The notes below the pieces were generated by a model. That model saw nothing but the letters and a program-made list of their open reading frames with translations. It ran no database searches and was not told where the DNA came from. A program made the position numbers and the translations under genes. A stretch of DNA of 64,000 nucleotides from contig OX359191.1 of assembly GCA_947172415.1 (NCBI GenBank), positions 3,720,001 to 3,784,000 on the forward strand, in the 5' to 3' direction. Of this stretch, positions 14,161-64,000 are shown one piece after another (within the stretch, counting starts at the first letter, position 1; each line of letters opens with the position of its first letter). Origin of the DNA: Chondrosia reniformis. Lineage: Eukaryota; Porifera; Demospongiae; Chondrillida; Chondrillidae.

Positions 14161-14208
14161 TAGTGTGAACAAAGCGGACAAAGTTGTTCCGAGTCCGCGT
14201 GCCATGAG

Positions 14209-14727: not shown

Positions 14728-14744
14728 TATATATATATACATAC

Positions 14745-15340: not shown

Positions 15341-15350
15341 CAGTCCAGTG

Positions 15351-15356
15351 TTTATT
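15351..15356 (-). terminator. AATAAA polyadenylation signal of the phosphatase gene
   Basis: AATAAA is read on the minus strand about 20 bases past the TAA at 15376-15378, the usual position for a short 3' UTR. Confidence 0.55.
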
Positions 15357-15375
15357 GTCACCATCTTGCAATTGG

Positions 15376-18053: not shown

Positions 18054-18299
18054 CTGAACACAAAATGATGAAACTTTGACACTATAATGTATTTACATAT
18101 ATATAATGAATTATAGTCACTTTGTAGTACTGCACTGTATACAGTAACAGACATATATGTATATATAGCTGGCAACAGACATTTTCAAAGAAGCGAATCA
18201 TTTTACCAAATGCATTTTGTATTCTATGAAAAAATAGGGAACTTTAAGATCACTATAAGATGTAGCATAAACTACATGTTCCAAATTCCTTGTGTCCCT

Positions 18300-18346
18300 A
18301 TGTGTGTATGCATGTATGTGTGTGTGCATGTATGTGTGTATGTGTA
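18300..18346 (+). repeat. TG/CATG microsatellite
   Basis: Alternating TGTGTGTATG and CATGTATGTG units make up the run. It lies in the intron just downstream (minus sense) of exon 18499-18352. Confidence 0.7.
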
Positions 18347-18351
18347 TTCAC

Positions 18352-19976: not shown

Positions 19977-20067
19977 CTACGTACGTATATTACATGAGTA
20001 ATCAATACATTATTTATTTTTCTTACATGCTTCGTATACATAGTAAAAGGCCTATGGGTATATAGGT

Positions 20068-20692
20068 TCCAAAATATATGTTGTAAATGAAGTCCTATTT
20101 ATATACCACTCACTTTTGACTCTACATATATATGCAATATATAAGATATATAATATGCATATAATATATATACAATATATATTACATATAAGATATATAA
20201 TACATATATAAGATGTATGCTTTTTTTTCTTTTTTTCTTTTTTCAGGACCCAACCTCGTATTGAACCAGGGCATCCGCGCACCTTGTATCCAGACGATGT
20301 CATCTGTAACACCATCAGTCACGTAGGTCCCACAATTTATGTTGTAAATGAAGTCCTATTTATATACCACTCACTTTTGACTCTACATATATATGCAATA
20401 TATAAGATATATAATATGCATCTAAGATATATAATATGCATATAAGATATATACAATATATATTCCATATAAGATATATAATACATATATAAAATGTATG
20501 CTTTTTTTCTTTTTTTTCTTTTTTCAGGACCCAACCTGGTATTGAACCAGGGCACCCGCGCACCTTGTATCCAGACGATGTCATCCGTAACACCATCGGT
20601 CACGTGGGTCACCCAATATATGTTGTAAATGAAGTCCTATTTATATACCACTCACTTTTGACTCTACATATATATGCAATATATATATATAT
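20068..20692 (+). repeat. Satellite array, first segment (about 2.5 monomers)
   Basis: The array starts abruptly near 20068, about 90 bp upstream (minus sense) of the first phosphatase exon present. The first identifiable block is the TATATGTTGTAAATGAAGTC part of a monomer, so the first monomer is truncated. The segment is cut by a foldback element inserted in the TA-rich half of the third monomer. Confidence 0.85.
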
Positions 20693-22829
20693 ATAATATT
20701 AAATTACAATCAAGTACTACACAGTACAAGTTACAAATTTAAGAGATCCAAGTGACTATGTAATATTAAAATTACAATCAAGTACTAGCTACACAGTGCA
20801 AGTTACAAATTTAAAGAGATCCAAGTGACCCCTAGGATAATCAGTATTTTAAACAGTACAAGACTTTAGTCACACTAGTACTGTTGCAGGCTTTGAAATC
20901 CTCAACTACTGCATAGAGAGTAGTAGTTGATACAGATCATCCAATTGCAAGGTAGAACACATGGCCTACCAATTACCTTTTCACACCTTAGTATAGACTG
21001 AAGATGATGCATCTGCCATATATCAACAAAGGCTTCAGTATTAAAGGGGTCTCAGCTAATAACCACAGCAGATTTGATTTGCCTTGTGAGGGAGCTAAGA
21101 ACACCGACGGTTGGTTGCATGCATTGGCATAATCAACAGGGTTAGAGACCATTTTGTAACTTGTACACAAGGGACATAAAAGGCCAAGGCCTTTATATAC
21201 GTATATGATTTCCCTTGTGTACAAGTTACAAAATGGTCTCTAACCCTGTTGATTATGCCAATGCATGCAACCAACCGTCGGTGTTCTTAGCTCCCTCACA
21301 AGGCAAATCAAATCTGCTGTGGTTATTAGCTGAGACCCCTTTAATTCTGAAGCCTTTGTTGATATATGGCATGCAGATGCATCATCTTCAGTCTATACTA
21401 AGGTGTGAAAAGGTAATTGGTAGGCCATGTGTTCTACCTTGCAATTGGATGATCTGTATCAACTACTACTCTCTATGCAGTAGTTGAGGATTTCAAAGCC
21501 TGCAACAGTACTAGTGTGACTAAAGTCTTGTACTGTTTAAAATACTGATTATCCTAGGGGTCACTTGGATCTCTTTAAATTTGTAACTTGCACTGTGTAG
21601 CTAGTACTTGATTGTAATTTTAATATTACATAGTCACTTGGATCTCTTAAATTTGTAACTTGTACTGTGTAGTACTTGATTGTAATTTAATATTTCATAT
21701 ATTTGCTAGTAACTTGCACTGTGTAGTGTACTTGAGTGTAATTAGCTAACAAAGTATTTCACTATACTTATAGACATTCGCTAAAAACAATTTCGTTACT
21801 GTATGTAGTACACATGGAAAACGTACTAACATGGATAAGAATAAAGCCTAGTTGAAAGTCAGCAATATGAATTTACTAATTCTGGACGTTTCGACCCAGA
21901 GGTCTTCATGCATCAGCAATATATGAGGAGTGGGAATACAATTCAGTATAAATAGGAAATTAGTAAATTCATGTTGCTGACACTCAACAAAGCTTTATTC
22001 TCGTAATGATCGCAACAAACACTCCTAATTCCTACACATGGACAAGTAAAAATATTAACAGATAACGTAAGAAGAGAAGACAGAGCTTAAATTACCAAAG
22101 TAATACGGTCGACCAAACGAATCCAGTCTTTCGCATCAATATAGGAACAACTCTGCCTCAAACTTGACGGGAACGTATACAAAAACGCTTTATCTAACCT
22201 TCGCTACAACTCGCCTGTTCGGTAGCTCCTTCTCATAGGAGAGCGTCGACTTGTCATAGCCGTTCTCGAAGGATGATTTTCTTTAGCAACGAGTCGGTGA
22301 CGTTTACGCAACGTCACATGATTCACTAAATGTGTGTACGGAGCGACATACGAAGGTGTTGGTGACGCATTAGAAGAACATCATAATACATCACCAGCTT
22401 GCGCAATCGTAACTTTGAATTCTTCATTATATCTTGATTATTTTGCTCATTTAATTAAGCAAAACTTCGTCAGACGTTTCTTATACACATGTACCATGAC
22501 ATATGTTGATTTCACAGTTATCTGACAAATTGAAATTTTTTATCAATATAACACATTGTTTGCATATAAATTTCCCATAGGTTTTCTATAGTCCTATGGC
22601 CTTTTATATGCAGACTTTGTCCTCTGTTTTCTAACAAACGGAGGCCTAAATTAAAAATCCCTTAATTTAAAATGAGTTTTATACCCTAAACTTTATGATG
22701 ATATGCCCATTTTGTTTCTAGGTCCTTTCTTGGAGCCATATGAATTATTTAATTAATTAATTAATTATATTATATTATATTATTTATTTATATTCGATTA
22801 CCTTAGTATATTGTAACTTGTACTGTATA
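20693..22829. mobile_element. Composite foldback element, copy 2, inserted in the satellite array
   Basis: Left edge: TATATATAATATT running into AAATTACAATCAAG. Right edge: TTGTAACTTGTACTGTATATA running back into the satellite (TAATATGCATATAAG). It has a complete palindrome A (arms about 20697-21190 and 21209-21700, centre near 21198), the hammerhead-like hairpin (21868-21972) and one arm B (about 22040-22829). It is almost identical to 7533-9480. The ends share ACAGTACAAGTTACAA in inverted orientation. No coding capacity for a transposase was seen. Confidence 0.75.
21868..21972 (-). ncRNA. Hammerhead-like hairpin with interrupted core, second copy
   Basis: It has the same structure as 8524-8628: strong helix II (GACC/GGUC), GAAAC, GUC and long helix I, but with CAUG inserted in CUGAUGA. 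It is therefore predicted inactive. Confidence 0.5.
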
Positions 22830-25800
22830 TAATATGCATATAAGATATATATAATATATATTACATATAAGATATATAATACATATATAAGATATATGCT
22901 TTTTTTTCTTTTTTCGGGACCCAACCTGGTATTGAACCAGGGCATCCTCATACCTTGTATCCAAACGATGTCATCCGTAACACCATCGGTCACGTGGGTA
23001 ACACAATATATGTTGTAAATGAAGTCCTATTTATATATTACTCACTTTTGACTCTACATATATGTAATATGTAAGATAAATAATATGCATATAAGATATA
23101 TACCATATATATTTTATATGATATATAATACATATATAAGATATATGCTTTTTTTTCTTTCTTCAGGACCCAACCTGGTATTGAACCAGGGCATCCTTGC
23201 ACCTTGTATTCAGACAATGTCATCCGTAACACCATCGGTCACGTGGGTAACACAATATATGTTGTAAATGAAGTCCTATTTATATATTACTCACTTTTGA
23301 CTCTACATATATGTAATATGTAAGATATATAATATGCATATAAGATATATACCATATATATTATATATGATATATAATACATATATAAGATATATGCTTT
23401 TTTTTCTTTCTTCAGGACCCAACCTGGTATTGAACCAGGGCATCCTTGCACCTTGTATTCAGACAATGTCATCCGTAACACCATCGGTCACGTGGGTAAC
23501 ACAATATATGTTGTAAATGAAGTCCTATTTATATATTACTCACTTTTGACTCTACATATATCTAATATGTAAGATGTATAATATGCATATAAGATATATA
23601 CCATATATATTAAATATGATATATAATACATATATAAGATATATGCTTTTTTGTCTTTCTTCAGGACCCAACCTGGTATTGAACCAGGGCATCCTCGTAC
23701 CTTGTATCCAGACGATATTATCCGTAACACGATTGGTCACGTGGGTTCCACAATATATGTTGTAAATAAAGTCCTATTTATATACCACTCACTTTTGACT
23801 CTACATATATATATATAATATATAAGATATATAATATGCATATAAGATATAAACAATATATATTACATATAAGATATATATTACATATATATGTTGTATG
23901 CATTTTTTCTTTTTTTTCTTTTTTCAGGACCCAACCTGGTATTGAACCAGGGCATTCTCGTACCTTGTATCAAGACGATGTCATCCGTAACACCATCGGT
24001 CACGTGGGTCACCCAATATATGTTGTAAATGAAGTCCTATTTATATGCCACTCACTTTTGACTCTACGTATATATGCAATATATAAGATATATAATAGGC
24101 ATATAAGATCTATACAATATATATTACACAAAAGATATATTATACATATATAAGATTAGTCAGGACCAAACCTGGTATTGAACCAGGGCATCCTCGTACC
24201 TTGTATCCAGACGATGTTATCCGTAACACGATCGGTCACGAGGGTTCCACAATATATGTATTAAATGAAGGCCTATTTATATACCACTCACTTTTGACTC
24301 TACATATATATGCAATATATAAAATATATAATATACTTATAAGATATAAACAACATATAAGATATATAATACATATATAAGTTGTAGGCTTTTTTTTTTT
24401 TCTTTTTTTTCAGGACGCAACCTGGTATTGAACCAGGGCATCCTCGTGCCTTGTATCCAGACGATGTCATCCGTAACACCATCGGTCACGTGGGTCACCC
24501 AATATATGTTGTAAATGAAGTCCTATTTATATACCACTCACTTTTAAATCTACATATATATGCAATATATATGTATATATAATATGCATATAAGATATAT
24601 ATAATGCATACATAAGATGTCTGCTCTTTTTTCTTTTTTCGGGACCCAACCTGGTATTGAACCAGGGCATCCTCGTACCTTGTATCAAGACGATGTCATC
24701 CGTAACACCATCGGTCACGTGGGTCACCCAATATATGTTGTAAATGAAGTCCTATTTATATACCACTCACTTTTAACTCTACATATATATGCAATATATA
24801 AGATATATAATATGCTTATAAGATATAAACAATATATAATATGCATATAAGATATATATAATACATACATAAGATGTCTGCTCTTTTTTCTTTTTTCGGG
24901 ACCCAACCTGGTATTGAACCAGGGCATCCTCGTACCTTGTATCCAGACAATGTCATCCGTAACACCATCGGTCACGTGGGTCACCCAATATATGTTGTAA
25001 ATGAAGTCCTATTTATATACCACTCACTTTTGACTCTACATATATATGCAATATACACATATATATAATATGCATATGAGATATATACAATATATATTAC
25101 ATATAAGATATATAATATATATATATAAGATGTATGCTTTTATTTCTTTTTCGGGACCCAACCTGGTATTAAACCAGGGCATCCTCGTACCTTGTATCAA
25201 GACGATGTCATCCGTAACACCATCGGTCACGTGGGTTCCACAATATATGTTGTAAATGAAATCCTATTTATATACCACTCACTTTTGACTCTACATTTAT
25301 ATGCAATATATAAGATATATAATATGCATATAAGATATATACAATATATATTACATATAAGATATATAATATGCATATAAGATATAAACAATATATATTA
25401 CATATAAGATATATAATACATATATAAGATGTATGCTTTTTTTCTTTTTTCAGAACCCCACTTGGTATTGAACCAGGGTATCCTCGTCCCTTGTATCCAG
25501 ACGATGTCATCCGTAACACCATCGGTCACGTGGATTCCACAATATATGTTTTAAATGAAGTCCTATTCATATACCACTCACTTTCGACTCTACATATATA
25601 TGCAAATTATAAGGAATATAATATGCATATAATATATATATAATATATATTACATATAAGATATATAATACATATATAAGATGTATGCTTTTTTTTCCTT
25701 TTTCTGGACCCAACCTGGTATTGAACCAGGGCATCCTCGTACCTTGTATCCAGACGATATTATCCGTAACACGATTGGTCACGTGGGTTCCACAATATAT

Positions 25801-27885
25801 GTTGTAAATGAAGTCCTATTTATATACCACTCACTTTTGACTCTACATATATATATAATATATAAGATATATAATATGCATCTAAGATATTTACAATATA
25901 TATTATATAGAAGATATATAATACATATATAAGATGTAGGCTTTTTTTCTTTTTTCAGGACCCAACCTGGTAGTGAACCAGGGCATCCTCGTACCTTGTA
26001 TCCAGACGATGTCATCCGTAACACCATCGGTCACATGGGTTCCACAATATATGTTGTAAATGAAGTCCTATTTATATACCACTCCCTTTCGACTCTACAT
26101 ATATATGCAAATTATAAGGTATATAATATCCATATAAGATAGATATAATATATACTACATATAAGATATATTATACATATATAAGATGTATGCTTTTTTT
26201 CTTTTTTCAGGACCCAACCTGGTATTGAACCAGGGCATCCTTGTACCTTGTATCCGACGATGTCATCTGTAACACAATCGGTCACGTGGGTTCCACAATA
26301 TATGTTGTAAATGAAGTCCTATTTATATACCACTCACTTTTGACTCTACATATATATGCAATATATAAGATGTATAATAGGCATATAAGATATTTACAAT
26401 ATATATTACATATAAGATAAATAATACATATATAAGATGTATGCTCTTTTTTCTTTTTTCAGGACCCAACCTGGTATTGAACCAGGACATCCTCGTACCT
26501 TATATCCAGACGATGTCATCCGTAACACCATTGGTCACGAGGGTTCCACAATATATGTTGTAAATGAAGTGCTATTTATATACCACTCACTTTTGACTCT
26601 ACATATATATGCAATATATTAGGTATTTAATATGCATATAAGATATATACAATATATATTACATATAAGATATATAATACATATATAAGATGTATGCTTT
26701 TTTTCTTGTTTCAGGACCCAACCTGGTATTGAACCAGGGCATTCTCGTACCTTGTATCCAGATGATGTCATCCGTAACACCATCAGTCACGTGGGTCACC
26801 CAATATATTTTATAAATGAAATCCTATTTATATACCGCTCACTTTTGACTCTACATATATATGCAATATATAAGATATATAATATGGATATTAGATATAT
26901 ACAATATATATTACATATAAGTTATATAATACATATATAAGATGTATGCTTTTTTTATTTTTTCAGGACCCAACCTGGTATTAAACCAGGGCATTCTCGT
27001 TCCTTGTATCCAGATGATGTCATCCGTAACACCAGCGGTCACGGGGATTCCACAATATATGTTGTAAATGAAGTCCTATTTATATACCACTAACTTTTGA
27101 CTCTACATATATATGCAATATATAAGATAAATAATATGCATATAAGATATTTACAATATATATTACATATAAGATATATAATACATATATAAGAATTATG
27201 CTTTTTTTCTTATTTCAGGACCCAACCTGGTATTGAACCAGGGCATCCTCGTACCTTGTATCCAGACGATGTCATCCGTAACACTATCAGTCACGTTGGT
27301 CACCCAATATATTTTATAAATGAAATCCTATTTATATACCACTCACTTTTGACTCTACATATATATGCAATAAATAAGATATATAATATGGATATTAGAT
27401 ATATACAATATATATTACATATAAGTTATAAAATACCTATATAAGATGTATGCTTTTTTTCTTTTTTCAGGACCCAACCTGGTATTGAACCAGGGCATTC
27501 TCGTACCTTGTATCCAGATGATGTCATCCGTAACACCATCGGTCACGGGGATTCCACAATATATGTTGTAAATGAAGTCCTATTAATATACCACTCACTT
27601 TTGACTCTACATATATATGCAATATATAAGATATATAATATGCATATAAGATATTTACAATATATATTACATATAAGATATATAATACATATATAAAATG
27701 TATGCTCTTTTTTCTTTTTTCAGGACCCAACCTGGTATTAAATCAGGGCATCCTCGTACCTTGTATCCAGACGATGTCATCCGTAACACCATCGGTCACG
27801 TGGGTTCCACAATATATGTTGTAAATGAAGTCCTATTTATATACCAATCACTTTTGACCCTACGTATATATGCAATATATAAGGA
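22830..27885 (+). repeat. Satellite array, diverged edge segment (about 20 monomers)
   Basis: Monomers of about 240-260 bp differ from each other at many positions, with loss or gain of AT-rich subrepeats. Only short local duplications are seen, for example the 249-bp neighbours at about 23038-23535 and a two-monomer (504 bp) duplication around 26700-27450. Variants of the conserved block include GCATCCTTGCACC and AACACGATTGG. Confidence 0.85.
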
Positions 27886-28015
27886 TAGTAAATGTCAGAT
27901 ATAATACATTTTATAATAAAAAAATTAAATATATCATTTAGTATGATATGTGCATAATCATTCTAAATAGTCAAATAGTCAAATAAAAACATTGGCTGTT
28001 GGGGAGAGGTACCCC

Positions 28016-28444
28016 TCACTGCGGCCGCGTTGCCCCGCTGGACAGCCACCGCATTACTTGCATCAGGCACTGCAAGGAGCGTGGCTCCCCTGTCTCAGCC
28101 CTGATCCTGTGACCCAGCTCCTTGATGAAAGTAATGGCCTCTTGCCCAAAAACCCCTGATGTTTCGATTGCAAATGGTACGAAATGGTGGCTGGAACCAA
28201 GAAGGGCGTACTTCTGGGTTTTTGCCTTCTCTGCTTGGCTGGCCACCAGCCCTGCAGCGAGGGCTACGTGGGAAGGGGCGAATGTATCAGGACAAGTGAC
28301 ATCCCATACCAGTGTCCGTCCGTTCCTCCAGGGCATCACTGAGATCCCATCCGGCCTTCTTCCATCAGAGCGTGCGATGCCCGTGGGCTCCAGGAGAGAG
28401 GGGATCTTTGCTGAGGCCAGTGACCGTTTGAGAAGGTCATTCAC
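28016..28444 (-). pseudogene. LINE restriction-like endonuclease domain
   Basis: The frame holds EPTGIARSDGRRPDGISVMP, then GRTLVWDVTCPDTFAPS and SQAEKAKTQKYALL. This is the PD...(D/E)-x-x type core of the restriction-like endonuclease (RPDG, then WDVT, then K residues), which nicks target DNA in this LINE class. The domain ends at the element's C-terminus SSGATRPQ. It looks open from end to end. Confidence 0.75.
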
Positions 28445-28468
28445 TGCTGCATGTCTTGGGTGCCGGCC

Positions 28469-28738
28469 CTAACTCCTCCTGCAGCTAAGGCCGTGCAAAC
28501 TCAAATGGTCCACTTCAGCGCCACACTGATGACATTTGTGGGGTCTGCAAAGGGCAACCCCTAGGCGGAGCCCCACTGCTACTCGAAGCACCTCATCGTC
28601 CATTCGGAGACCAATAGCCGACATTGGAGGTGCATGTAGCCATTCACCCGACTCCTTCCTCTGAGATGCCAGCAGACGAGCTTGAGCTAACTCATCAGGA
28701 GATTCCCTCACAAGGGCTTCTGCTGCTGCTGTCACCAC
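28469..28738 (-). pseudogene. LINE protein, CCHC knuckle ahead of the endonuclease
   Basis: CHQCGAEVDHLSLHGLSC gives C-x2-C-x7-H-x4-C, the zinc knuckle that precedes the endonuclease in R2-type proteins. Its frame differs from that of the reverse transcriptase piece. Confidence 0.65.
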
Positions 28739-28756
28739 GGGGCCATCCCAAGCCTT

Positions 28757-29893
28757 CTAATGAGAAGAGTCAGGGGCACATGGAGCTGGTTCTTTGTGGC
28801 CCTGATGCCAGACTACCAATGCCTCTGTGGCTGCTGGGAATGGGGAGTTCAGCAGTGTTTGGGGCAAGATCTGCTGGACAAGCTGTGCACAACCCGCAGC
28901 CGATGCTAAATAAGCAGAAGGTGCAAGCTGGGTTGTGCTACGAACTCCCAGCCCACCAACTCGGACTGGGAGAGACGCTTGGGTCCATGCAGAGTCAGAG
29001 AGGTTGACATTTAGGATGGTGCTCAGCAAAAATCTAAGGAGGGAGTCAAAATCATGCAGGGCCGGGACGAGGAAGCATGGTGAGGTGCGCAGGATGTATA
29101 GCACCTTGGGGATGGCCAGGGCATTACGTAGAAGACAGAAGGCATTGTGGGCACGTAAAAGCTGTAACCTGCTCCCCAGGGTCTGAAGTGACTTTGTTCT
29201 CTTTAGGATGGTGTCTTGAATGCCACTGGCAGTGCCAATGGGAGACCCAAGCAAAGTGGAATGGCCTCGCTCTGTCACACTGAGACCTGGGACAGCACGA
29301 AGCATGGCTGACCTTGTGGTGCTGTCATCACAAATGACTTCTGACTTGTCTCGATTGAGTTGGAGACCTAGCTCCCCCGCCATTCGTTCCACAGTGCTGA
29401 AATCCTCAAGGACCTCCTCCAAGCTGCCACCAAGTGTGCCATCATCTAAGAAGAAAACATTGAACTCGCTTTGCAACTGTTGCACCAAGTCATGGATAGC
29501 AAGGCAGAAGAGCAATGGGCCGAGGGGGTCACCCTGTTGCACACCTTCTGAGGATGGTATAATGTCTTCCCCAAAGAAAAGGAAGGAAGGAGCACTGTAG
29601 GCACAGGTGACCAAAGGGAGCAACTCAGGTGCCAGCTGCTTCACAGCAGCAATCATCTTATCTCGACGAAGGCAGTTAAAAGCATTCCTGAAATCAAGCT
29701 TCAAGATGAGGTGCCCAGGCTGCAGGTTGTGGAGGAAGATGCAGCTGGCATGAACAGCGGCCTCCGCTCCCAAGGGTACACCAAATCCCAATTGGTGAGG
29801 TGCCAGGAGTGCTCCCATGGCTTCCTTCACGCAGGCACCTGCGTACTTTGCCACAAGGCGACGCAATGTGCACCCAACGGCGATTGGTCTCAA
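28757..29893 (-). pseudogene. LINE reverse transcriptase palm
   Basis: A long frame begins at GGGLRPIAVGCTLRRLVAKY. Motif A is ILKLDFRNAFNCLRRDKM, motif B is SEGVQQGDPLGPLLFCLAIH and motif C is VFFLDDGTLGG, i.e. FLDD in place of the common YADD. The thumb follows. Catalytic aspartates are kept. The frame continues to about the knuckle region and then breaks. Confidence 0.8.
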
Positions 29894-29962
29894 ACCTCCA
29901 CCTTTTTGTTCAAAGCAATCAGGGTGGCTCCAAAGAAGGAGGCCCGAGCCGGGACAGCAGTT

Positions 29963-30640
29963 TCACCTCTCAGCACACAATTCACAAAAAAGGTGACAGA
30001 TCGAAGCAACATCTGCCCACCCCCCCAGGGCTGACTTACTTATCATGTCCTTCAGGTGTTGCGGACGCAGGGCATCTGGGCCACCAGCGGAACCACAAGG
30101 GAAAGAGCAGATGGCTCTTGCTACCTCGTCCTCTGATACCTGGACTGGCATTGGTTGATCCTCGGTGGACACTAGTGGAATAGCAGAATCCGGGTGGGGC
30201 AGAGGATACTTTTCCCAAAGGGTGGCAAGCGTTTCACTGCTAGGGACTGCAATACTGTCTTCAGAAGAGGCAAGACGAACTGCCCCTTTAAAATCTCCTT
30301 CCTCTAGTTTAGCAGAAACTCTCCCTGCTAAAGTGTCTACTGGATCGCGAGTGAATTTACCTGTTCGTCTGTTAGGGGCAGACTGGACGAAGGTAGGGTC
30401 CGCTTCCTCTTTGATAAGCTGGTTGGTGTGTGAAGCCAAGCTTCTGCGATGGCCGCCTCTATCTGGCACTCGTAGGCATCGGGCAGAGAAACAGAACAGG
30501 CAATCCCAGGAAGACTCCGAGCCATCTGATGAGACGCGATCGAGGATTGCGGCCAATTTTCTCACCGACAGATCACGGGAGGGGCGAGGGACTCTCTTCA
30601 GGATCTTTACTGAGAACCTGCGTAGCTTGAAGGCCTGCGC
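29963..30640 (-). pseudogene. LINE protein, second finger and start of reverse transcriptase
   Basis: The piece contains KRVPRPSRDLSVRKLAAIL, a second finger-like segment WDCLFCFSARCLRVPDRGGH, and then CSFPCGSAGGPDALRPQHLK, the conserved block just ahead of the polymerase fingers in this LINE group. The frame is lost before the palm. Confidence 0.65.
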
Positions 30641-30662
30641 GGTATCCGCGATTTCAGGGATG

Positions 30663-30833
30663 TTACCGCGATGACAGGTGCTGAATTAACACTTGGCCAT
30701 GAACGCGGATAAGTCCCAATCTAGTAACGGGCATTGATCGGTGACAAACTGTACATAGGGAGCGGAAAGAGGCAGACTCTTCTGGAGCTTCATCCTCAAT
30801 CAGAGCGGTCTCACCCTCACCGTCATCCGCCAT
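30663..30833 (-). pseudogene. LINE protein, N-terminal zinc-finger piece
   Basis: It starts MADDGEGETALIEDEAPEES and continues CTVCHRSMPVTRLGLIRVHG, a finger-like C-x2-C...H pattern usual at the start of R2-like proteins. The frame stops at 30663-30665, and the continuing sequence (FKLRRFSVKILKRVPRPSRD) lies in another frame. Confidence 0.6.
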
Positions 30834-31996
30834 CTTATTTCTCTTTTATATATCAAATTAAATCATATAAGATATATAATATGCATATAAGATATATGCA
30901 ATATATATTACATATAAGATATATAATATGCATATAAGATATATACAATATATATTATATATAAGATATATAATACATATATAAAATATATTCTTTTTTT
31001 CTTTTTTCTGGACCCAACCTGGTATTGAACCAGGGCATCCTCGTACCTTGTATCCAGAAGATAACATCCGTAACACCATCGGTCACGTGGGTTCCACAAT
31101 ATATGTTGTAAAAAAAGTCCTATTTATATACCACTCACTTTTGCCTCTACATATATATGCAATATATAAGATATATAATATGCATATAAGATATATACCA
31201 TATATATTACACATTAGATATATAATACATATATAAGATGTATGTTTTTTTCTTTTTTCAGGCCCCAATCTGGTATTGCACCAGGGCATCCTCGTACCTT
31301 GTATCCAAACGATGTCATCCGTGACACCATCGGTCACGTGGGTCACCCAATATAGGTTGTAAAAGAAGTCCTATTTATATACCACTCACTTTTGACTCTA
31401 CATATATATGCAATATATAAGATATATAATATGCATATAAGATATATATATTACATATAAGATATATAATACATATATAAGATGTATGCTTTTTTTCTTT
31501 TTTCAGGACCCAACCTGGTATTGAACCAGGGCATCCTCGTACCTTGTATCCAGACGATGTCATTAGTAACACCATCGGTCATGTGGGTCACCCATTATAT
31601 GTTGTAAATGAAGTCCTATTTATATACCACTCACTTTTGACTCTACATATATATGCAATATATAAGATATATAATATGCATATAAGATATATACAATATA
31701 TATTACATATAAGATATATAATACATATATAAGGTGTATGCTTTTTTTCTTTTTTCAGGACCCAACCTGGTATTGAACCAGGGCATCCTCGTACCTTGTA
31801 TCCAGACGATGTCATCCGTAACACAATCGGTCACGTGGGTTTCATAATATATGTTGTAAATGAAGTCTTATTTATATGCCACTCACTTTTGACTCTACAT
31901 ATATATGCAATATATAAGATATATAATATGCATATCAGATATATACAATATATATTACATATAAGATATATAATACATATATAAGGTGTATGCTTT

Positions 31997-32065
31997 TTTT
32001 TTTTCAGGACCCAACCTGGTATTGAACCGCCCTGGTTCAATACCAGGTTGGGTCCTGAAAAAAAT
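31997..32065. repeat. Palindrome from an inverted duplication inside one monomer
   Basis: The T-tract plus CAGGACCCAACCTGGTATTG is followed, after a 5-bp spacer (32029-32033), by its own reverse complement ending in an A-run. The monomer then resumes with GGGCATCCTCGTACC. The arms are about 30 bp and perfect across the CAGGACCC...GAACC part. Confidence 0.85.
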
Positions 32066-38343: not shown

Positions 38344-38596
38344 GATGTATGCTTTTTTTTCTTTTTTCAGGACCCAACCTGGTATTGAACCTGGTTTTCC
38401 TCGTACCTTGTATCAAGACGATGTCATCCGTAACATCATCGGTCACGTGGCTACCATAATATATGTTTTAATGAAGTCCTATTTATATACCCCTCACTTT
38501 TGACTCTACATATATATGCAATATATAAGATATATAATATGCATATAAGATATATACAATATATATTACATATAAGATATATAATACATATATAAG

Positions 38597-51700: not shown

Positions 51701-54700
51701 ACATATATATGCAATATATAAGATATATAATATGCGTATAAGATATATACAATATATATTACATATAAGATATATAATACATATATAAGATGTATGCTCT
51801 TTTTTCTTTTTTCAGGACCCAAGCTGGTATTGAATCAGGGCATCCTCGTACCTTGTATCCAGACGATGTCATCCGTAACACCATCGGTCACGTGGGTCAC
51901 CCAATATATGTTATAAATGAAGTCCTATTTATATACCACTCACTTTTGACTCTACATATATATATATATATATATACAATATATAAGATATATAATATGC
52001 ATATAAGATATATACAATATATATTACATATAAGATATATAATACATATATAAGATGTATCCTTTTTTTTTTTTTTCAGGACCCAACCTTGTTTTGAACC
52101 ACGGCATCCTCGTACCTTGTATCCAGACGATGTCATCCGTAACACCATTGGTCACGTGGCTTCCATAATATATGTTTTAAATGAAGTCCTATTTAACTTT
52201 TGACTCTACATATATATGCAATATATAAGATATATAATATGCATATAAGATATATAACATATATATTACATATAAGATATATATTACATATAAAAGATGT
52301 ATGCTCTTTTTTCTTTTTTCAGGACCCAAACTGGTATTGAATCAGGGCATCCTCGTAACTTGTATCCAGACGATTTCATCCGTTACACCGTCGGTCACGT
52401 GGGTCACCCAATATTTGTTGTAAATGAAGTCCTATTTATAAACCACTCACTTTTGACTCTACATATATATGCAATATATAAAATATATAATATACATAAA
52501 AGATATATACAATATATATTACATATAAGATATATAATATATATATAAGATGTATGCTTTTTCTTTTTTCAGGGCCCTACCTGGTATTGAACCAGGGCAT
52601 CCTCATACCTTGTATCCAGACGTTGTCATCCGTAACACCATCGGTCATGTGGGTCACCCAATATTTGTTGTAAATGAAGTCCTATTTATAAACCACTCAC
52701 TTTTGACTCTACATATATATGCAATATATAAAATATATAATATACATAAAAGATATATACAATATATATTACATATAAGATATATAATATATATATAAGA
52801 TGTATGCTTTTTTCTTTTTTCAGGGCCCTACCTGGTATTGAACCAGGGCATCCTCATACCTTGTATCCAGACGTTGTCATCCGTAACACCATCGGTCATG
52901 TGGGTCACCCGTTATTGTTGTAAATGAAGTCCTATTTATATACCACTTACTTTTGACTCTACGTATATATGCAATATATAAGATATATAATATACATATA
53001 AGATATATACAATATATATTACATATAAGATATATAATACACATATAAGATGTATGCTTTTTTTTCCTTTTTCAGGACCCAACTTGGTATTGAACCAGGT
53101 TATCCTCGTACCTTGTATCAAGACGATGTCATCCGTAACATCGTCGGTCACGTGGCTACCATAATATATGTTTTAATGAAGTCCTATTTATATACCCCTC
53201 ACTTTTGACTCTACATATATATGCAATATATAAGATATATAATATGCATATAAGATATATAATACATATATAAGATGTATGCTCTTTTTTCTTTATTCAG
53301 GACCCAAACTGGTATTGAATCAGGGCATCCTCGTACCTTGTATCAAGACGATGTCATCCGTAACACCATCGGTCACGTGGGTCACCCAATATATGTTGTA
53401 AATGAAGTCCTATTTATATACCACTCACTTTTGACTCTACATATATATATATATATACAATATATAAGATATATAATATGCATATAAGATATATACAATA
53501 TATATTACATATAATATATATAATACATATATAAGATGTATGCTTGTTTTTCTTTTTTCAGGTGACCCAACTTGGTATTGAACCAGGGCATCCTCGTACC
53601 TTGTATCCAGACGATGTCATCCGTAACACCATCGGTCACGTGGCTTCCATAATATATGTTGTAAATGAAGTCGTATTTATATACCCCTCACTTTTGACTC
53701 TACATATATATGCAATAAATAAAATATATAATATGCATATAAGATATATACAATATATATTACATAAAAGATATATAATACATATATAAAATGTATTCTC
53801 TTTTTTCTTTTTTCAGGACCCAAACTGGTATTGAATCAGGGCATCCTCGTACCTTGTATCCAGACGATGTCATCCGTAACACCATCAGTCACGTGGGTCA
53901 CCCAATATTTGTTGTAAATGAAGTCCTATTTATATACCACTCACTTTTGACTCTACATATATATGCAATATATAAAATATATAATATGCATATAAGATAT
54001 ATACAATATATATTACATATAAGATATATAATATATATATAAGATGTATGCTTTTTTCTTTTTTCAGGACCCAACTTGGTATTGAATCAGGGCATCCTCG
54101 TACCTTGTATCCAGACGATGTCATCCGTAACACCATCGGTCACGTGGGTCACCCAATATTTGTTGTAAATGAAGTCCTATTTATATACCACTCACTTTTG
54201 ACTCTACATATATATGCAATATATAAAATATATAATATGCATATAAGATATATACAATATATATTACATATAAGATATATAATATATATATAAGATGTAT
54301 GCTTTTTTCTTTTTTCAGCACCCAACTTGGTATTGAACCAGGTTATCCTCGTACCTTGTATCAAGACGATGTCATCCGTAACATCGTCGGTCACGTGGGT
54401 CACCCAATATTTGTTGTAAATGAAGTCCTATTTGTAAACCACTCACTTTTGACTCTACATATATATGCAATATATAAGATATATAATATGCATATAAGAT
54501 ATATACAATATATATTACATATAAGATATATAATACACAAATAAGATGTAAGCTTTTTTTTCTTTTTTCAGGACCCAACCTCGTATTGAACCTGGTTATT
54601 CTCGTACCTTGTATCAAGACGATGTCATCCGTAACATCATCGGTCACGTGGCTACCATAATATATGTTTTAATGAAGTCCTATTTATATACCCCTCACTT

Positions 54701-57700
54701 TTGACTCTACATATATATGCAATATATAAGATATATAATATGCATATAAGATATATACAATATATATTACATATAAGATATATAATACATATATAAGATG
54801 TATGCTCTTTTTTCTTTTTTCAGGACCCAAACTGGTGTTGAATCTGGGCATCCTCGTGCCTTGTATACAGACGATGTCATCCGTAACACCATCGGTCACG
54901 TGGGTCACCCAATATATGTTGTAAATGAAGTCCTATTTATATACCACTCACTTTTGACTCTACATATATATATATATATATACAATATATAAGATATTTG
55001 ATATGCATACAAGATATATATACAATATATATTACATATAAGACATATAATACATATATAAGATGTATGCTTTTTTTTTTTCAGGACCCAACCTGGTATT
55101 GAACCAGGGCATCCTCGTGCCTTGTATCCAGACGATGTCATCTGTAACACCATCGGTCACGTGGGTTCCACAATATATGTTGTAAATGAAGTCCTATTGA
55201 TTTACCACTCACTTTTGACTCTACATATATATGCAATATATAAGATATATAATATGCGTATAAGATATATACAATATATATTACATATAAGATATATAAT
55301 ACATATACAAGATGTATGCTCTTTTTTCTTTTTTCAGGACCCAAGCTGGTTTTGAATCAGGGCATCCTCGTACCTTGTATCCAGACGATGTCATCCGTAA
55401 CACCATCGGTCACGTGGGTCACCCAATATATGTTATAAATGAAGTCCTATTTATATACCACTCACTTTTGACTCTACATATATATATATATATACAATAT
55501 ATAAGATATATAATATGCATATAAGATATATACAATATATATTACATATAAGATATATAATACATATATAAGATGTATCCTTTTTTTTTTTTCAGGACCC
55601 AACCTTGTTTTGAACCACGGCATCCTCGTACCTTGTATCCAGACGATGTCATCCGTAACACCATTGGTCACGTGGCTTCCATAATATATGTTTTAAATGA
55701 AGTCCTATTTAACTTTTGACTCTACATATATATGCAATATATAAGATATATAATATGCATATAAGATATATAACATATATATTACATATAAGATATATAT
55801 TACATATAAAAGATGTATGCTCTTTTTTCTTTTTTCAGGACCCAAACTGGTATTGAATCAGGGCATCCTCGTAACTTGTATCCAGACGATTTCATCCGTT
55901 ACACCGTCGGTCACGTAGGCCACCCAATATTTGTTGTAAATGAAGTCCTATTTATAAACCACTCACTTTTGACTCTACATATATATGCAATATATAAAAT
56001 ATATAATATACATAAAAGATATATACAATATATATTACATATAAGATATATAATATATATATAAGATGTATGCTTTTTTCTTTTTTCAGGGCCCTACCTG
56101 GTATTGAACCAGGGCATCCTCATACCTTGTATCCAGACGTTGTTATCCGTAACACCATCGGTCATGTGGGTCACCCAATATTTGTTGTAAATGAAGTCCT
56201 ATTTATAAACCATTCACTTTTGACTCTACATATATATGCAATATATAAAATATATAATATACATAAAAGATATATACAATATATATTACATATAAGATAT
56301 ATAATATATATATAAGATGTATGCTTTTTTCTTTTTTCAGGGCCCTACCTGGTATTGAACCAGGGCATCCTAATACCTTGTATCCAGACGTTGTCATCCG
56401 TAACACCATCGGTCATGTGGGTCACCCATTATTGTTGTAAATGAAGTCCTATTTATTTACCACTTACTTTTGACTCTACATATATATGCAATATATAAGA
56501 TATATAATATACATATAAGATATATACAATATATATTACATATAAGATATATAATACACATATAAGATGTATGCTTTTTTTTCTTTTTTCAGGACCCAAC
56601 TTGGTATTGAACTAGGTTATCCTCGTACCTTGTATCAAGACGATGTCATCCGTAACATCGTCGGTCACGTGGCTACCATAATATATCTTTTAATGAAGTC
56701 CTATTTATATACCCCTCACTTTTGACTCTACATATATATGCAATATATAAGATATATAATATGCATATAAGATATATAATACATATATAAGATGTATGCT
56801 CTTTTTTCTTTTTTCAGGACCCAAACTGGTATTGAATCAGGGCATCCTCGTACCTTGTATCAAGACGATGTCATCCGTAACACCATCGGTCACGTGGGTC
56901 ACCCAATATATGTTGTAAATGAAGTCCTATTTATATACCACTCACTTTTGACTCTACATATATATATATATACAATATATAAGATATATAATATGCATAT
57001 AAGATATATACAATATATATTACATATAATATATATAATACATATATAAGATGTATGCTTGTTTTTCTTTTTTCAGGTGACCCAACTTGGTATTGAACCA
57101 GGGCATCCTCGTACCTTATATCCTGACGATGTCATTCGTAACACCATCGGTCACATGGGTCACCCAATATTTGATGTTAATGAAGTCCTATTTATATACC
57201 ACTCACTTTTGACTCTACATATATATGCAATATATAAGATATATAATATGCATATAAGATATATACAATATATATTACATATAATATATATAATACATAT
57301 ATGGGATGTCTGCTTGTTTTTCTTTTTTCAGGTGACCCAACTTGGTATTGAACCAGGGCATCCTCGTACCTTGTATCCAGACGATGTCATCCGTAACACC
57401 ATCGGTCACGTGGCTTCCATAATATATGTTGTAAATGAAGTCGTATTTATATACCCCTCACTTTTGACTCTACATATATATGCAATAAATAAAATATATA
57501 ATATGCATATAAGATATATACAATATATATTACATAAAAGATATATAATACATATATAAAATGTATTCTCTTTTTTCTTTTTTCAGGACCCAAACTGGTA
57601 TTGAATCAGGGCATCCTCGTACCTTGTATCCAGACGATGTCATCCGTAACACCATCGGTCACGTGGGTCACCCAATATTTGTTGTAAATGAAGTCCTATT

Positions 57701-58920
57701 TATATACCACTCACTTTTGACTCTACATATATATGCAATATATAAAATATATAATATGCATATAAGATATATACAATATATATTACATATAAGATATATA
57801 ATATATATATAAGATGTATGCTTTTTTCTTTTTTCAGGACCCAACTTGGTATTGAATCAGGGCATCCTCGTACCTTGTATCCAGACGATGTCATCCGTAA
57901 CACCATCGGTCACGTGGGTCACCCAATATTTGTTGTAAATGAAGTCCTATTTATATACCACTCACTTTTGACTCTACATATATATGCAATATATAAAATA
58001 TATAATATGCATATAAGATATATACAATATATATTACATAAAAGATATATAATACATATATAAAATGTATTCTCTTTTTTCTTTTTTCAGGACCCAAACT
58101 GGTATTGAATCAGGGCATCCTCGTACCTTGTATCCAGACGATGTCATCCGTAACACCATCGGTCACGTGGGTCACCCAATATTTGTTGTAAATGAAGTCC
58201 TATTTATATACCACTCACTTTTGACTCTACATATATATGCAATATATAAAATATATAATATGCATATAAGATATATACAATATATATTACATATAAGATA
58301 TATAATATATATATAAGATGTATGCTTTTTTCTTTTTTCAGGACCCAACTTGGTATTGAATCAGGGCATCCTCGTACCTTGTATCCAGACGATGTCATCC
58401 GTAACACCATCGGTCACGTGGGTCACCCAATATTTGTTGTAAATGAAGTCCTATTTATATACCACTCACTTTTGACTCTACATATATATGCAATATATAA
58501 AATATATAATATGCATATAAGATATATACAATATATATTACATATAAGATATATAATATATATATAAGATGTATGCTTTTTTCTCTTTTCAGGACCCAAC
58601 TTGGTATTGAACCAGGTTATCCTCGTACCTTGTATCAAGACGATGTCATCCGTAACATCGTCGGTCACGTGGGTCACCCAATATTTGTTGTAAATGAAGT
58701 CCTATTTGTAAACCACTCACTTTTGACTCTACATATATATGCAATATATAAGATATATAATATGCATATAAGATATATACAATATATATTACATATAAGA
58801 TATATAATACACAAATAAGATGTAAGCTTTTTTTTCTTTTTTCAGGACCCAACCTCGTATTGAACCTGGTTATCCTCGTACCTTGTATCAAGACGATGTC
58901 ATCCGTACCATCATCGGTCA
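45715..58920 (+). repeat. Higher-order repeat of 4,796 bp (about 19 monomers), two full copies and a partial third
   Basis: Copy 1 is about 45715-50510 and copy 2 about 50511-55306. At least twenty landmark variants keep the spacing of 4,796, including GTTACAGCATCGG and a monomer head in TATAGTATGTCTGCTTG. From 55312 a third, rearranged copy follows at +3,516 to +4,274 with inserted or lost monomers and a 504-bp doublet (57561 and 58065). Confidence 0.85.
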
Positions 58921-59071
58921 CGTGGCTACCATAATATATGTTTTAATGAAGTCCTATTTATATACCCCTCACTTTTGACTCTACATATATATGCATTATA
59001 TAAGATATATAATATGCATATAAGATATATACAATATATATTACATATAAGATATATAATACATATATAAG

Positions 59072-62000
59072 ATGTATGCTCTTTTTTCTTTTTTCAGGAC
59101 CCAAACTGGTATTGAATCAGGGCATCCTCGTACCTTGTATCCAGACGATGTCATCCGTAACACCATCGGTCACGTGGGTTCCACAATATATGTTGTAAAT
59201 GAAGTCCTATTGATTTACCACTCACTTTTGACTCTACATATATATGCAATATATAAGATATATAATATGCATATAAGATATATTACATATATATTACATA
59301 TAAGATATATAATACATATATAAGATGTATGCTTGTTTTTCTTTTTTCAGGTCACCCAACTTCGTATTGAACCAGGGAATCCTCGTACCTTGTATCCAGA
59401 CGATGTCATCCGTAACACCATCAGTCATGTGGGTCACCATTATATATTGTAAATGAAGTCCTATTTACATACCACTTACTTTTGACTCTACGTATATATG
59501 CAATATATAAGATATATAATATGCATATAAGATATATACAATATATATTACATATAAGATATATAATACATATATAAGATGTATGTTTTTTTTCTTTTTC
59601 AGGACCCAACCTGGTATTGAACAAGGGCATCCTCGTATGTACCCTGTATCCAGACGATGTCATCCGTAACACCATTGGTCACGTGGCTTCCATAATATAT
59701 GTTTTAAATGAAGTCCTATTTATATACCCCTCACTTTTGACTCTACATATATATGCAATATATAAGATATATATTACATATAAGATATATAATACATATT
59801 TAAGATGTATGCTTTTTTTTTCTTTTTCAGGCCCCAAACTGGTGTTGAATCAGGGCACACATCGTACCATGTATCCAGACGATGTCATCCGTAACACCAT
59901 CGGTCACGTGGGTCACCCAATATTTGTTGTAAATGAAGTCCTATTTATATACCACTCACTTTTGACTCTACATATATATGCAATATATAAAATATATAAT
60001 ATACATAAAAGATATATACAATATATATTACATATAAGATATATAATATATATATAAGATGTATACTTTTTTCTTTTTTCAGGGCCCTACCTGGTATTTA
60101 ACCAGGGCATCCTCATACCTTGTATCCAGACGTTGTCATCCGTAACACCATCGGTCATGTGGGTCACCCATTATTGTTGTAAATGAAGTCCTATTTATAT
60201 ACCACTCACTTTTGACTCTACATATATATGCAATATATAAAATATATAATATGCATATAAGATATATACAATATATATTACATATAAGATATATAATACA
60301 TATATAAGATGTATGCTCTTTTTTCTTTTTTCAGGACCCAAACTGGTATTGAATCAGGGCATCCTCGTACCTTGTATCCAGACGATGTCATCCGTAACAC
60401 CATCGGTGACGTGGCTTCCATAATATATGTTGTAAATGAAGTCGTATTTATATACCCCTCACTTTTGACTCTACATATATATGCAATAAATAAAATATAT
60501 AATATGCATATAAGATATATACAATATATATTACATAAAAGATATATAATACATATATAAAATGTATTCTCTTTTTTCTTTTTTCAGGACCCAAACTGGT
60601 ATTGAATCAGGGCATCCTCGTACCTTGTATCCAGACGATGTCATCCGTAACACCATCGGTCACGTGGGTTCCACAATATATGTTGTAAATGAAGTCCTAT
60701 TGATTTACCACTCACTTTTGACTCTACATATATATGCAATATATAAGATATATAATATGCATATAAGATATATTACATATATATTACATATAAGATATAT
60801 AATTCATATATAAGATGTATGCTTGTTTTTCTTTTTTCAGGTCACCCAACTTCGTATTGAACCAGGGAATCCTCGTACCTTGTATCCAGACGATGTCATC
60901 CGTAACACCATCAGTCATGTGGGTCACCATTATATATTGTAAATGAAGTCCTATTTACATACCACTTACTTTTGACTCTACGTATATATGCAATATATAA
61001 GATATATAATATGCATATAAGATATATACAATATATATTACATATAAGATATATAATACATATATAAGATGTGTGTTTTTTTTCTTTTTCAGGACCCAAC
61101 CTGGTATTGAACAAGGGCATCCTTGTATGTACCTTGTATCCAGACGATGTCATCCGTAACACCATTGGTCACGTGGCTTCCATAATATATGTTTTAAATG
61201 AAGTCCTATTTATATACCCCTCACTTTTGACTCTACATATATATGCAATATATAAGATATATATTACATATAAGATATATAATACATATTTAAGATGTAT
61301 GCTGTTTTTTCTTTTTCAGGCCCCAAACTGGTGTTGAATCAGAGCATACATCGTACCATGTATCCAGACGATGTCATCCGTAACAACATCGGTCACGTGG
61401 GTCACCCAATATTTGTTGTAAATGAAGTCCTATTTATATACCACTCACTTTTGACTCTACATATATATGCAATATATAAAATATATAATAAGAATATAAG
61501 ATATATACAATATATATTACATATAAGATGTATAATATATATATAAGATTTATGCTTTTTTTCTTTTTTCAGGACCCTACCTGGTATTGAACCAGGGCAT
61601 CCTCGTACCTTGTATCCAGACGATGTCATCCGTAACACCATCGGTCACATGGGTCACCCAATGTATGTTGTAAGTTAAGTCCTATTTATATACCACTCAC
61701 TTTTGACTCTACATATATATGCAATATATAAGATATATAATATGCATATAAGATATATACAATATATATTACATATATGATATATAATACATATATATGA
61801 TGTAGGCTCTTTTTTCTTTTTTCAAGACCCTAACTGGTATTGAATCAGGGCATCCTCGTACCTTGTATCCAGACGATGTCATCCGTAACACCATCGGTCA
61901 CGTCGGTCACCCAATATTTGTTGTAAATACAGTCCTATTTATATACCACTCACTTTTGACTCTACATATATATGCAATATATAAGATATATAATATTCAT

Positions 62001-63575
62001 ATAAGATATATAAAATATATAATACATATAAGATATATAATACATATATAAGATGTAGCCTTTTTTTTCTTGTTTGAGGACCCAACCTGGTATTGAACTA
62101 GGGTATCCTCGTACCTTGTATCCAGACGATGTCATCCGTAACACCATCGGTCACGTGGGTTCCACAATATATGTTGTAAATGAAGTCCTATTTATATACC
62201 ACTCACTTTTGACTCTACATATATATACAATATATAAGATATATAATATGCATATAAGATATATACAATATATACTACATATAAGATATATAATACATAT
62301 ATAAGATGTTTGCTCTTTTTCTTTTTTCAGGACCCAAACTGGTATTGAATCAGGGCATCCTCGTACCTTGTCTCCAGACGTTGTCATCCGTAACACCATC
62401 GGTCGCGTGGGTTCCACAATATATGTTGAAAATGAAGTCCTGTTTATATACCACTCACTTTTGACTCTACGTATATATGCAATATATAAGATATATAATA
62501 TTCATATTAGATATATACAATATATATAACATATAAGGTATATAATATATATATATAAGATTTGTGCTTTTTTCTTTTTTCAGGACCCAACCTGGTATTG
62601 AACCAGGGCATCCTCGTACCTTGTATCCAGACGATGTCATCCGTAACACCATCGGTCACCTGGCTTCCATAATATATGTTTTAAATGAAGTCCTATTTAT
62701 ATACCCCTCACTTTTGACTCTACATATATATGCAATATATAAGATATATAATATGCATATGAGATATATACAATATATATTACATATAAGATATATAATA
62801 CATATATAAGATGTATGCTCTTTTTTCTTTTTTCAGGACCCAAACTGGTATTGAATCAGGGCATCCTCGTACCTTGTCTCCAGACGTTGTCATCCGTAAC
62901 ACCATCGGTCGCGTGGGTTCCACAATATATGTTGAAAATGAAGTCCTGTTTATATACCACTCACTTTTTACTCTACGTATATATGCAATCTATAAGATAT
63001 ATAATATTCATATTAGATATATACAATATATATAACATATAAGGTATATAATATATATATATAAGATGTGTGCTTTTTTCTTTTTTCAGGACCCAACCTG
63101 GTATTGAACCAGGGCATCCTCGTACCTTGTATCCAGACGATGTCATCCGTAACACCATCGGTCACCTGGCTTCCATAATATATGTTTTAAATGAAGTCCT
63201 ATTTATATACCCCTCACTTTTGACTCTACATATATATGCAATATATAAGATATATAATATGCATATGAGATATATACAATATATATTACATATAAGATAT
63301 ATAATACATATATAAGATGTATGCTTGTTTTTCTTTTTTCAGGTCACCCAACTTGGTATTGAACCAGGGCATCCTCGTACCTTGTATCCAGACGATGTCA
63401 TCCGTAACACCATCGGTGACGTGGCTTCCATAATATATGTTGTAAATGAAGTCGTATTTATATACCCCTCACTTTTGACTCTACATATATATGCAATAAA
63501 TAAAATATATAATATTCATATAAGATATATACAATATATATTACATAAAAGATATATAATACATATATAAAATGT
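59072..63575 (+). repeat. Higher-order duplications of 1,490 bp and 506 bp
   Basis: Variant monomers at 59072-60057 recur at +1,490 (60562-61546). Two monomers with CTTGTCTCCAGACGTTGTC and GTCACCTGGCTTCC recur at +506 (about 62310-62815 and 62816-63321). Confidence 0.75.
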
Positions 63576-64000
63576 ATTCTCTTTTTTCTTTTTTCAGGAC
63601 CCAAACTGGTATTGAATCAGGGCATCCTCGTACCTTGTATCCAGACGATGTCATCCGTAACATCATCGGTCACGTGGGTCACCCAATATTTGTTGTAAAT
63701 GAAGTCCTATTTATATACCACTCACTTTTGACTCTACATATATATGCAATATATAAAATATATAATATGCATATAAGATATATACAATATATATTACATA
63801 TAAGATATATATATATAAGATGTATGCTTTTTTCTTTTTTCAAGGCCCTACCTGGTATTGAACCAGGGCATCCTCGTACCTTGTATCCAGACGATGTCAT
63901 CCGTAACACCATCGGTCATGTGGGTCACCCATTATTGTTGTAAATGAAGTCCTATTTATATACCACTTACTTTTGGCTCTACGTATATATGCAATATATA

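What the first reader, a model, noticed from the sequence alone, without database searches (positions are those of the whole stretch)
20068..64000. A 44-kb satellite array with young core and old edge
About 150 monomers of about 253 bp, diverged and insertion-bearing near 20-31 kb but homogenised into near-identical higher-order blocks from about 33 kb on. This age gradient is the known signature of centromeric or other large satellite domains expanding by unequal exchange. The array continues past the window, so its full size is unknown. I do not recognise the monomer as a described satellite.
Basis: partly seen in the sequence, partly recalled or inferred. Interest (0 to 1): 0.7.

Follow-up and report, generated by a model that had tools for sequence, protein, structure and literature searches.

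The report
Sponge pericentromeric satellite inside giant palindrome
A 56-kb block of a 253-bp repeat in a sponge chromosome appears to belong to the region where the centromere is expected, and a mirror-image copy of the block shows how such DNA is rewritten from its core.

Summary
Window 20,055-64,000 carries 147 full monomers of about 252 bp (mean identity 91%); 98 of 98 at 33.8-59 kb have a partner of 97% or more, against 2 of 19 at the left edge. The array ends 12 kb past the window (56 kb); the right edge is intermediate (12 of 23). All listed copies, on 11 of 14 chromosomes, lie in one interior zone per chromosome (lists capped). A 13-bp minisatellite beside the array marks such a zone on all 14 (complete list of one exact 57-mer, one outlier array). 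No listed tRNA gene (0 of 60) or kinase match (0 of 131) lies in these zones. This supports a (peri)centromeric satellite; CENP-A binding is untested. Unexpectedly, the array lies in one arm of a palindrome of at least 306 kb in the assembly. Flanks next to the two arrays are 99.5-99.6% identical and array edges still correspond between arms, but the sampled core monomers match better within their own arm (0.991) than across (0.968): the cores were rewritten separately. A retained haplotype is not excluded for the palindrome.

The parts
1..20054 (.). Inner flank of the array; part of the palindrome's right arm (window 1 mirrors about C3:3,656,807, window 20,055 mirrors C3:3,640,652). Holds a protein-tyrosine-phosphatase fragment (17125-17499, - strand) and foldback-type repeats (7.4-14.7 kb).
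20055..20686 (+). Outermost left satellite monomers
20687..22811 (.). 2.1-kb insertion of a repetitive foldback element, parts of which are also present at 7.4-14.7 kb
22812..27884 (+). Old left edge of the satellite array (2 of 19 monomers at 20-28 kb have a partner of 97% or more)
27885..30863 (-). Inserted element with a reverse transcriptase (RVT_1) fragment
30864..33807 (+). Array right of the insertion, still mostly old (3 of 11)
33808..59094 (+). Young core: 98 of 98 full monomers have a partner of 97% or more
45745..55334 (+). Two tandem copies of a 19-monomer, 4,796-bp block, 99.64% identical
33808..38367 (+). Two tandem copies of a 2,281-bp block, 99.90% identical
59095..64000 (+). 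Array continues (14 of 19); true end 12 kb beyond the window at C3:3,796,005

Best explanation
This is a (peri)centromeric satellite array of the sponge Chondrosia reniformis. The 253-bp repeat, together with a 13-bp minisatellite, occupies one gene-poor interior zone per chromosome that most likely contains the centromere. The array renews itself mainly in its core: blocks of several to 19 monomers are duplicated in tandem, most likely by unequal exchange or break-induced copying, while the edges change less. On chromosome 3 the array, its flanks and duplicated genes exist as a mirror-image copy, and the two array cores have been rewritten separately. Shown: the map from capped lists, the age gradient, the block duplications, the mirror copy in the assembly, and separate cores in the stretches read. 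Inferred: the exchange mechanism and centromere function.
For: Satellite copies listed only in interior zones on C2-C8, C10, C11, C13, C14. The 13-bp minisatellite gives 69 exact 57-mers at 43 loci on all 14 chromosomes; on the 11 chromosomes with two or more loci the mean span is 9% of the chromosome (5.8% without one outlier) against 53% for independent random placement, minimum 26% in 20,000 trials. The zones total 13.8 Mb (11.7% of the genome) and hold 0 of 60 listed nuclear tRNA genes (7.0 expected, P 6e-4; P 1.3e-3 as 53 clusters) and 0 of 131 listed kinase matches (65, 55 or 37 clusters, P 3e-4, 1e-3 or 1e-2 by merging distance). Block duplications in the core. Comparison of the arms: flanks next to the arrays 99.5% and 99.6% identical; edge monomers find better partners in the other arm (mean 0.991 and 0.981) than in the left pieces read (0.951 and 0.937), whereas the 24 left-core monomers find better partners in their own arm (0.991, 23 of 24 at 97% or more) than in the right (0.968, 7 of 24).
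Against: No CENP-A, Hi-C or cytology data. The 253-bp repeat was not listed on C1, C9 or C12. Arrays met are tens of kb and can lie about 1 Mb apart on one chromosome. Genes (macro/WWE, adaptin-like and PTP fragments) lie between the two C3 arrays. The edges are not inert: 12 of 23 right-edge monomers have a partner of 97% or more, and variant patterns in the left arm's outer edge recur at a spacing of about 2,536 bp. The four insertions met in the right array lie outside its core stretch, but the 9-kb sample of the left core holds a non-satellite gap of about 2.5-2.8 kb, so insertions are not confined to edges. Mean monomer identity between chromosomes (0.876-0.907, the C3 right-edge samples left aside) is close to that within samples (0.877-0.923), so there is no strong chromosome-specific homogenisation outside young blocks.
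Confidence: 0.75

Rival explanations
1. The 253-bp satellite is pericentromeric heterochromatin only; the kinetochore sits on another sequence in the same zone (13-bp minisatellite, a retroelement, or unique DNA between arrays).
For: The 13-bp repeat is on all 14 chromosomes, the 253-bp repeat on 11 in the lists seen; arrays are interrupted and differ in orientation; genes lie between the C3 arrays.
Against: The 253-bp array has a clear young core with block duplications, as expected of centromeric satellites; the 13-bp stretches read look degenerate (by eye).
Confidence: 0.4
2. The arrays are interstitial heterochromatic blocks (knob-like) with no link to the centromere.
For: No functional data; not listed on three chromosomes; arrays of modest size.
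Against: One interior zone per chromosome, shared with the 13-bp repeat on all 14 chromosomes, and free of the listed tRNA genes and kinases.
Confidence: 0.1
3. The C3 palindrome is an assembly artefact: the second haplotype was kept and joined in reverse, so the two arrays are alleles.
For: Arms differ by about 0.5% beside the arrays, of the order of heterozygosity (about 1%, my hand arithmetic from the k-mer completeness values in PMC12181767). The assembly was hifiasm --primary with purge_dups and manual removal of duplicate sequences.
Against: Axis and both inner arms lie on one N-free 170-kb stretch; identity falls to 96-97% beside the axis; the same stretch also holds direct 14.7-kb duplications at about 99.5%, which alleles do not explain.
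Confidence: 0.2

Closest known systems
Alpha satellite of primate centromeres (recalled)
   Same: Monomer array with near-identical higher-order blocks in the core and older, insertion-bearing monomers at an edge
   Different: Monomer length 253 bp against 171 bp (recalled; sequences not compared); blocks in two or three copies of varied size, no long regular higher-order array; tens of kb instead of megabases; no CENP-B-box match (best 5 of 9 fixed positions)
Candidate centromere tandem repeats of animals and plants (Melters et al. 2013, PMC4053949; abstract and passages seen)
   Same: Tandem repeat with higher-order structure as candidate centromere DNA
   Different: That study takes the most abundant repeat as candidate, which was not tested here; its main text has no occurrence of sponge, Porifera or Amphimedon
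Inverted-repeat-flanked central-core centromeres of fission yeast (recalled)
   Same: Mirror-image repeats around a central region on C3
   Different: Shown on one chromosome only; far larger; genes in the inner arms; function untested
Large palindromes of mammalian sex chromosomes (recalled)
   Same: Arms over 100 kb, mostly above 99% identical in the stretches compared, carrying duplicated genes
   Different: In a (peri)centromeric zone, with satellite arrays in the arms and at the axis

Membership tests
Centromeric satellite DNA | Long head-to-tail arrays of one monomer with recent block homogenisation | tested here: met
Centromeric satellite DNA | One location per chromosome | tested here: met
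   All listed copies in one interior zone per chromosome, several arrays within it, spans up to about 1.2 Mb; lists capped or partial except, so copies elsewhere are not excluded
Centromeric satellite DNA | Present on every chromosome | tested here: inconclusive
   253-bp repeat listed on 11 of 14; none on C1, C9, C12. The 13-bp repeat is on 14 of 14
Centromeric satellite DNA | Zone poor in genes | tested here: met
   0 of 60 listed nuclear tRNA genes and 0 of 131 listed kinase matches in 11.7% of the genome; but genes do occur between the C3 arrays
Centromeric satellite DNA | Bound by CENP-A / kinetochore; at the primary constriction | not testable with these tools
   needs ChIP, CUT&Tag, FISH or Hi-C
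Centromeric satellite DNA | Most abundant tandem repeat of the genome | not tested
Alpha-satellite-type higher-order array | One multimonomer unit repeated many times | tested here: not met
   Blocks occur in two or three copies with different periods
tRNA-derived repeat (SINE-like) | Recognisable tRNA head | tested here: inconclusive
   B-box-like GGTTCAATACC 88 times on the - strand of the array and GGTTCGATACC in axis copies, but no tRNA by ARAGORN or Rfam and only a marginal alignment to 30 of the 63 tRNAs (37 against a 99% shuffle level of 34 and a shuffle maximum of 46)
Protein-coding tandem exon | Third codon positions most variable | tested here: not met
   Third positions are the least variable (0.031 against 0.094 and 0.067)

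The most novel reading that the evidence does not exclude
The centromere region of sponge chromosome 3 is a real palindrome of more than 300 kb, in which mirror-image satellite arrays flank a gene-bearing central region: an animal centromere with an inverted-repeat architecture. The two arms, about 0.5% diverged beside the arrays, act as an internal clock showing that satellite cores are replaced while edges and flanks still correspond.
Probability: 0.25. Interest if true: 0.8.

Novelty: new member of a known kind. Interest (0 to 1): 0.6.

Why it matters
My searches of the open-access library found no description of a sponge centromere repeat, and sponges branch early among animals. This gives candidate DNA for one sponge, with a 13-bp repeat marking all 14 chromosomes, testable by FISH or CENP-A profiling. 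The duplicated array on chromosome 3 is also a natural experiment: two copies with nearly identical flanks whose cores have been rewritten separately, so satellite turnover can be measured against neighbouring sequence instead of being assumed from the age gradient.

Tried and rejected
Coding exon: the repeat has a TTTTTTCAG/G acceptor-like stretch and an open frame, but third codon positions vary least: rejected. tRNA gene or tRNA-derived SINE: ARAGORN and Rfam find no tRNA, alignment to 30 sponge tRNAs is marginal: left as a lead. The miRNA matches at the axis are below their gathering scores and fall mostly on a GC-rich hairpin repeat: taken as spurious. CENP-B box: best 5 of 9 positions: no. 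The fuzzy-regex monomer count found only 23 on the + strand and was replaced by a profile search. Self-BLAST for blocks returned no rows and was replaced by the monomer matrix. A perfectly symmetric old-young-old gradient and insertions confined to edges: my first reading, not borne out. Scattered short-array family: not what the capped genome lists show.
Full report
What is there. A profile search finds the 253-bp repeat from 20,055 to the window's end, all on the + strand, 161 matches of which 147 are full monomers, with two insertions. Mean pairwise identity is 91%. The young part is sharply defined: 98 of 98 full monomers between 33.8 and 59 kb have a partner of at least 97%, against 2 of 19 at 20-28 kb, 3 of 11 at 30.8-33.8 kb and 14 of 19 at 59-64 kb. 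The partners come in ordered runs: 19 monomers repeated at a shift of 4,796 bp with 99.64% identity, a 2,281-bp block at 99.90%, and others at shifts from 770 to 9,070 bp. Shuffled monomer order never gave a run longer than 4 in 200 trials. These are recent block duplications of varied size, in two or three copies, not one regular higher-order unit.

Where it is. The window is C3:3,720,001-3,784,000 of a 117.4-Mb genome in 15 contigs. Contig lengths include 8,459,200 and 6,903,244, exactly the scaffold N50 and N90 given for Chondrosia reniformis odChoReni1.1, and those seen agree with the paper's chromosome table (PMC12181767: outline with abstract, sections 7 and 15, and passages). Total length (117,379,552 against 117,390,217) and longest scaffold (10,409,357 against 10,413,042) differ slightly from the paper's figure legend. 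The species is identified by these lengths, not by a sequence comparison.

The full array. It continues to C3:3,796,005, about 56 kb in all, interrupted at C3:3,785,536 by a transposon with DDE_1 (E 2.4e-35) and Tc5-type HTH (E 8.7e-14) domains, pogo/Tigger-like by recalled features, and at about 3,790,696 by an element whose 379-aa frame has no Pfam match. Right of the first insertion the monomers form a distinct subfamily with lower mutual identity. Over the whole array the numbers with a partner of 97% or more are, from left to right, 2 of 19, 5 of 11, 98 of 98, 14 of 24 and 12 of 23: young in the core, old on the left, intermediate on the right.

Genome map. A 38-mer of the conserved part has 1,651 copies within three mismatches, none for the reversed control; in the window the same test catches 128 of about 150 monomers, so this is a lower bound. 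Place lists stop at 100 except, and one search scored 15 of 318 candidates, so I used several subfamily patterns. Listed copies lie on C2, C3, C4, C5, C6, C7, C8, C10, C11, C13 and C14, always interior, for example C2 4.83-6.02, C8 3.58-3.63, C10 3.11-3.65, C14 3.04-3.44 Mb. None was listed on C1, C9 or C12. Majority sequences of samples from C2, C3, C6, C10 and C14 differ at only a few positions; the C3 right-edge samples differ most.

A second repeat marks the same zones. Outside the array lies a degenerate 13-bp minisatellite, CATACAACTAGTA (by eye). The complete list of one exact 57-mer (69 matches, 43 loci) covers all 14 chromosomes, each in one interior zone, except one short array at C3:7.0035 Mb. 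Three chromosomes (C1, C2, C14) have a single locus in that list. On the other 11 the mean span is 9% of the chromosome (5.8% without the outlier); independent random placement gives 53%, never below 26% in 20,000 trials. Local duplication makes loci less independent than that null assumes, but it does not explain one zone on each of 14 chromosomes. The first 100 of 283 exact 44-mers (C1 to C6) show the same zones.

Gene content. The zones, drawn from the listed hits of both repeats, add up to 13.8 Mb, 11.7% of the genome. None of the 60 nuclear tRNA genes listed (7.0 expected; P 6e-4, or 1.3e-3 as 53 clusters) and none of the 131 kinase matches listed (65, 55 or 37 clusters; P 3e-4 to 1e-2) lies in them. 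These lists hold only the best-scoring candidates (63 of 5,542 and 126 of 1,147 scored). One zone per chromosome, rich in tandem repeats and poor in these genes, is what a centromere region looks like in an assembly.

An unexpected palindrome. The array's flanks have mirror copies on the same chromosome: C3:3,578,286-3,582,270 matches 3,799,991-3,796,009 inverted at 99.5%, and 3,640,652-3,646,772 matches 3,740,055-3,733,929 at 99.6%. Samples further out match at 97.5% (3,566,001), 99.5% (3,556,001) and 99.4% (3,536,001 against 3,842,209), so at least 306 kb in all; at 3,496 against 3,880 kb only 84% over 470 bases was found. The axis, near 3,689,000, carries a small inverted pair of old 253-bp arrays (five matches on each strand) around a GC-rich hairpin repeat. 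C3:3,634,001-3,804,000 is N-free. The inner arms hold duplicated genes: macro and WWE domains, an adaptin fragment and a PTP fragment, with a direct 14.7-kb duplication as well.

What the palindrome tells. Aligned end to end, satellite edges are 97.5% (outer, 3,698 bases) and 96.3% (inner, 628 bases) identical between arms, flanks 99.5-99.6%. Monomer by monomer, the edges still correspond between arms: 14 outer and 15 inner left-arm monomers find partners of mean 0.991 and 0.981 in the right arm, but only 0.951 and 0.937 in the left pieces read. The core is reversed: 24 left-core monomers find 0.991 in their own arm (23 of 24 at 97% or more) and 0.968 in the right arm (7 of 24) (against the window alone 0.990 and 0.960, 3 of 24). 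The right arm's 4,796-bp blocks match 0.998 within the window and 0.952 in the left-core sample. So the core was rewritten in each arm while edges and flanks hardly changed. Caveats: only 9 kb of the left core was read, and gene conversion between arms could keep flanks alike and slow the clock.

Results against a simple core-only picture. Half of the right-edge monomers have close partners; in the left arm's outer edge the same variants recur at a spacing of about 2,536 bp, so an edge was amplified there too; and the left-core sample holds a gap of about 2.5-2.8 kb without satellite, so insertions do occur in a young core, although the four met in the right array lie outside its core stretch.

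Is the palindrome real? Heterozygosity, worked out by hand from the k-mer completeness values (69.43, 74.54, 93.73%, k = 31), is about 1%, so two alleles joined in reverse would look similar. Against that: no gap in the inner 170 kb, lower identity beside the axis (96-97%), and direct duplications at the same divergence in the same stretch. I put a real palindrome at about 0.8. The comparison of cores and edges holds for alleles too.

Function. The best reading is a (peri)centromeric satellite that renews itself mainly from the core by tandem block duplication. Whether the kinetochore sits on the 253-bp cores, on the 13-bp repeat or between them cannot be told here.

Literature. Searches for sponge with centromere and satellite terms (listings only, with passages read in PMC4053949 and PMC10232365) found no described sponge centromere repeat. 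The library is open-access only, and no repeat database was searched.

Noticed in passing
C3:3,536,001-3,842,209 (window is inside the right arm): Giant palindrome in the assembly, compared stretches mostly 99.0-99.6% identical (96-97% near the axis, 97.5% in one sample), axis near 3,689,000, with duplicated genes and arrays in both arms.
   Followed up: partly
L046 about 3260-4810 (axis, C3:3,688,260-3,689,810): GC-rich tandem hairpin repeat at the palindrome axis; gives below-threshold miRNA hits in Rfam.
   Followed up: no
window 7427-14743 and 20687-22811: Copies of a foldback element with long inverted arms (up to 99% complementary); one copy interrupts the satellite edge.
   Followed up: no
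C3:3,703,070-3,707,066 and 3,717,808-3,721,805: Direct 14.7-kb duplication next to macro-domain genes, both copies 99.4-99.5% to the left arm.
   Followed up: partly
C3:7,003,506-7,003,614: The only listed exact array of the 13-bp minisatellite outside the interior zones, about 110 bp and perfectly regular.
   Followed up: no
C7:3,754,927-3,791,460: Satellite blocks change orientation several times within 37 kb, and sets of + and - copies recur.
   Followed up: no
array, - strand of each monomer: B-box-like GGTTCAATACC (GGTTCGATACC in old axis copies) in a T-arm-like hairpin, with a TATAAATA stretch some 37 bases upstream of the tRNA-like part, read by eye; a Pol III origin is possible but unproven.
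   Followed up: partly
L064, C3:about 3,602,830-3,605,640: Non-satellite insertion inside the left arm's young core, unidentified (longest frames 174, 144, 112 aa).
   Followed up: no
C14:0.59-1.14 Mb: Dense cluster of kinase-domain genes, apparently a local expansion.
   Followed up: no
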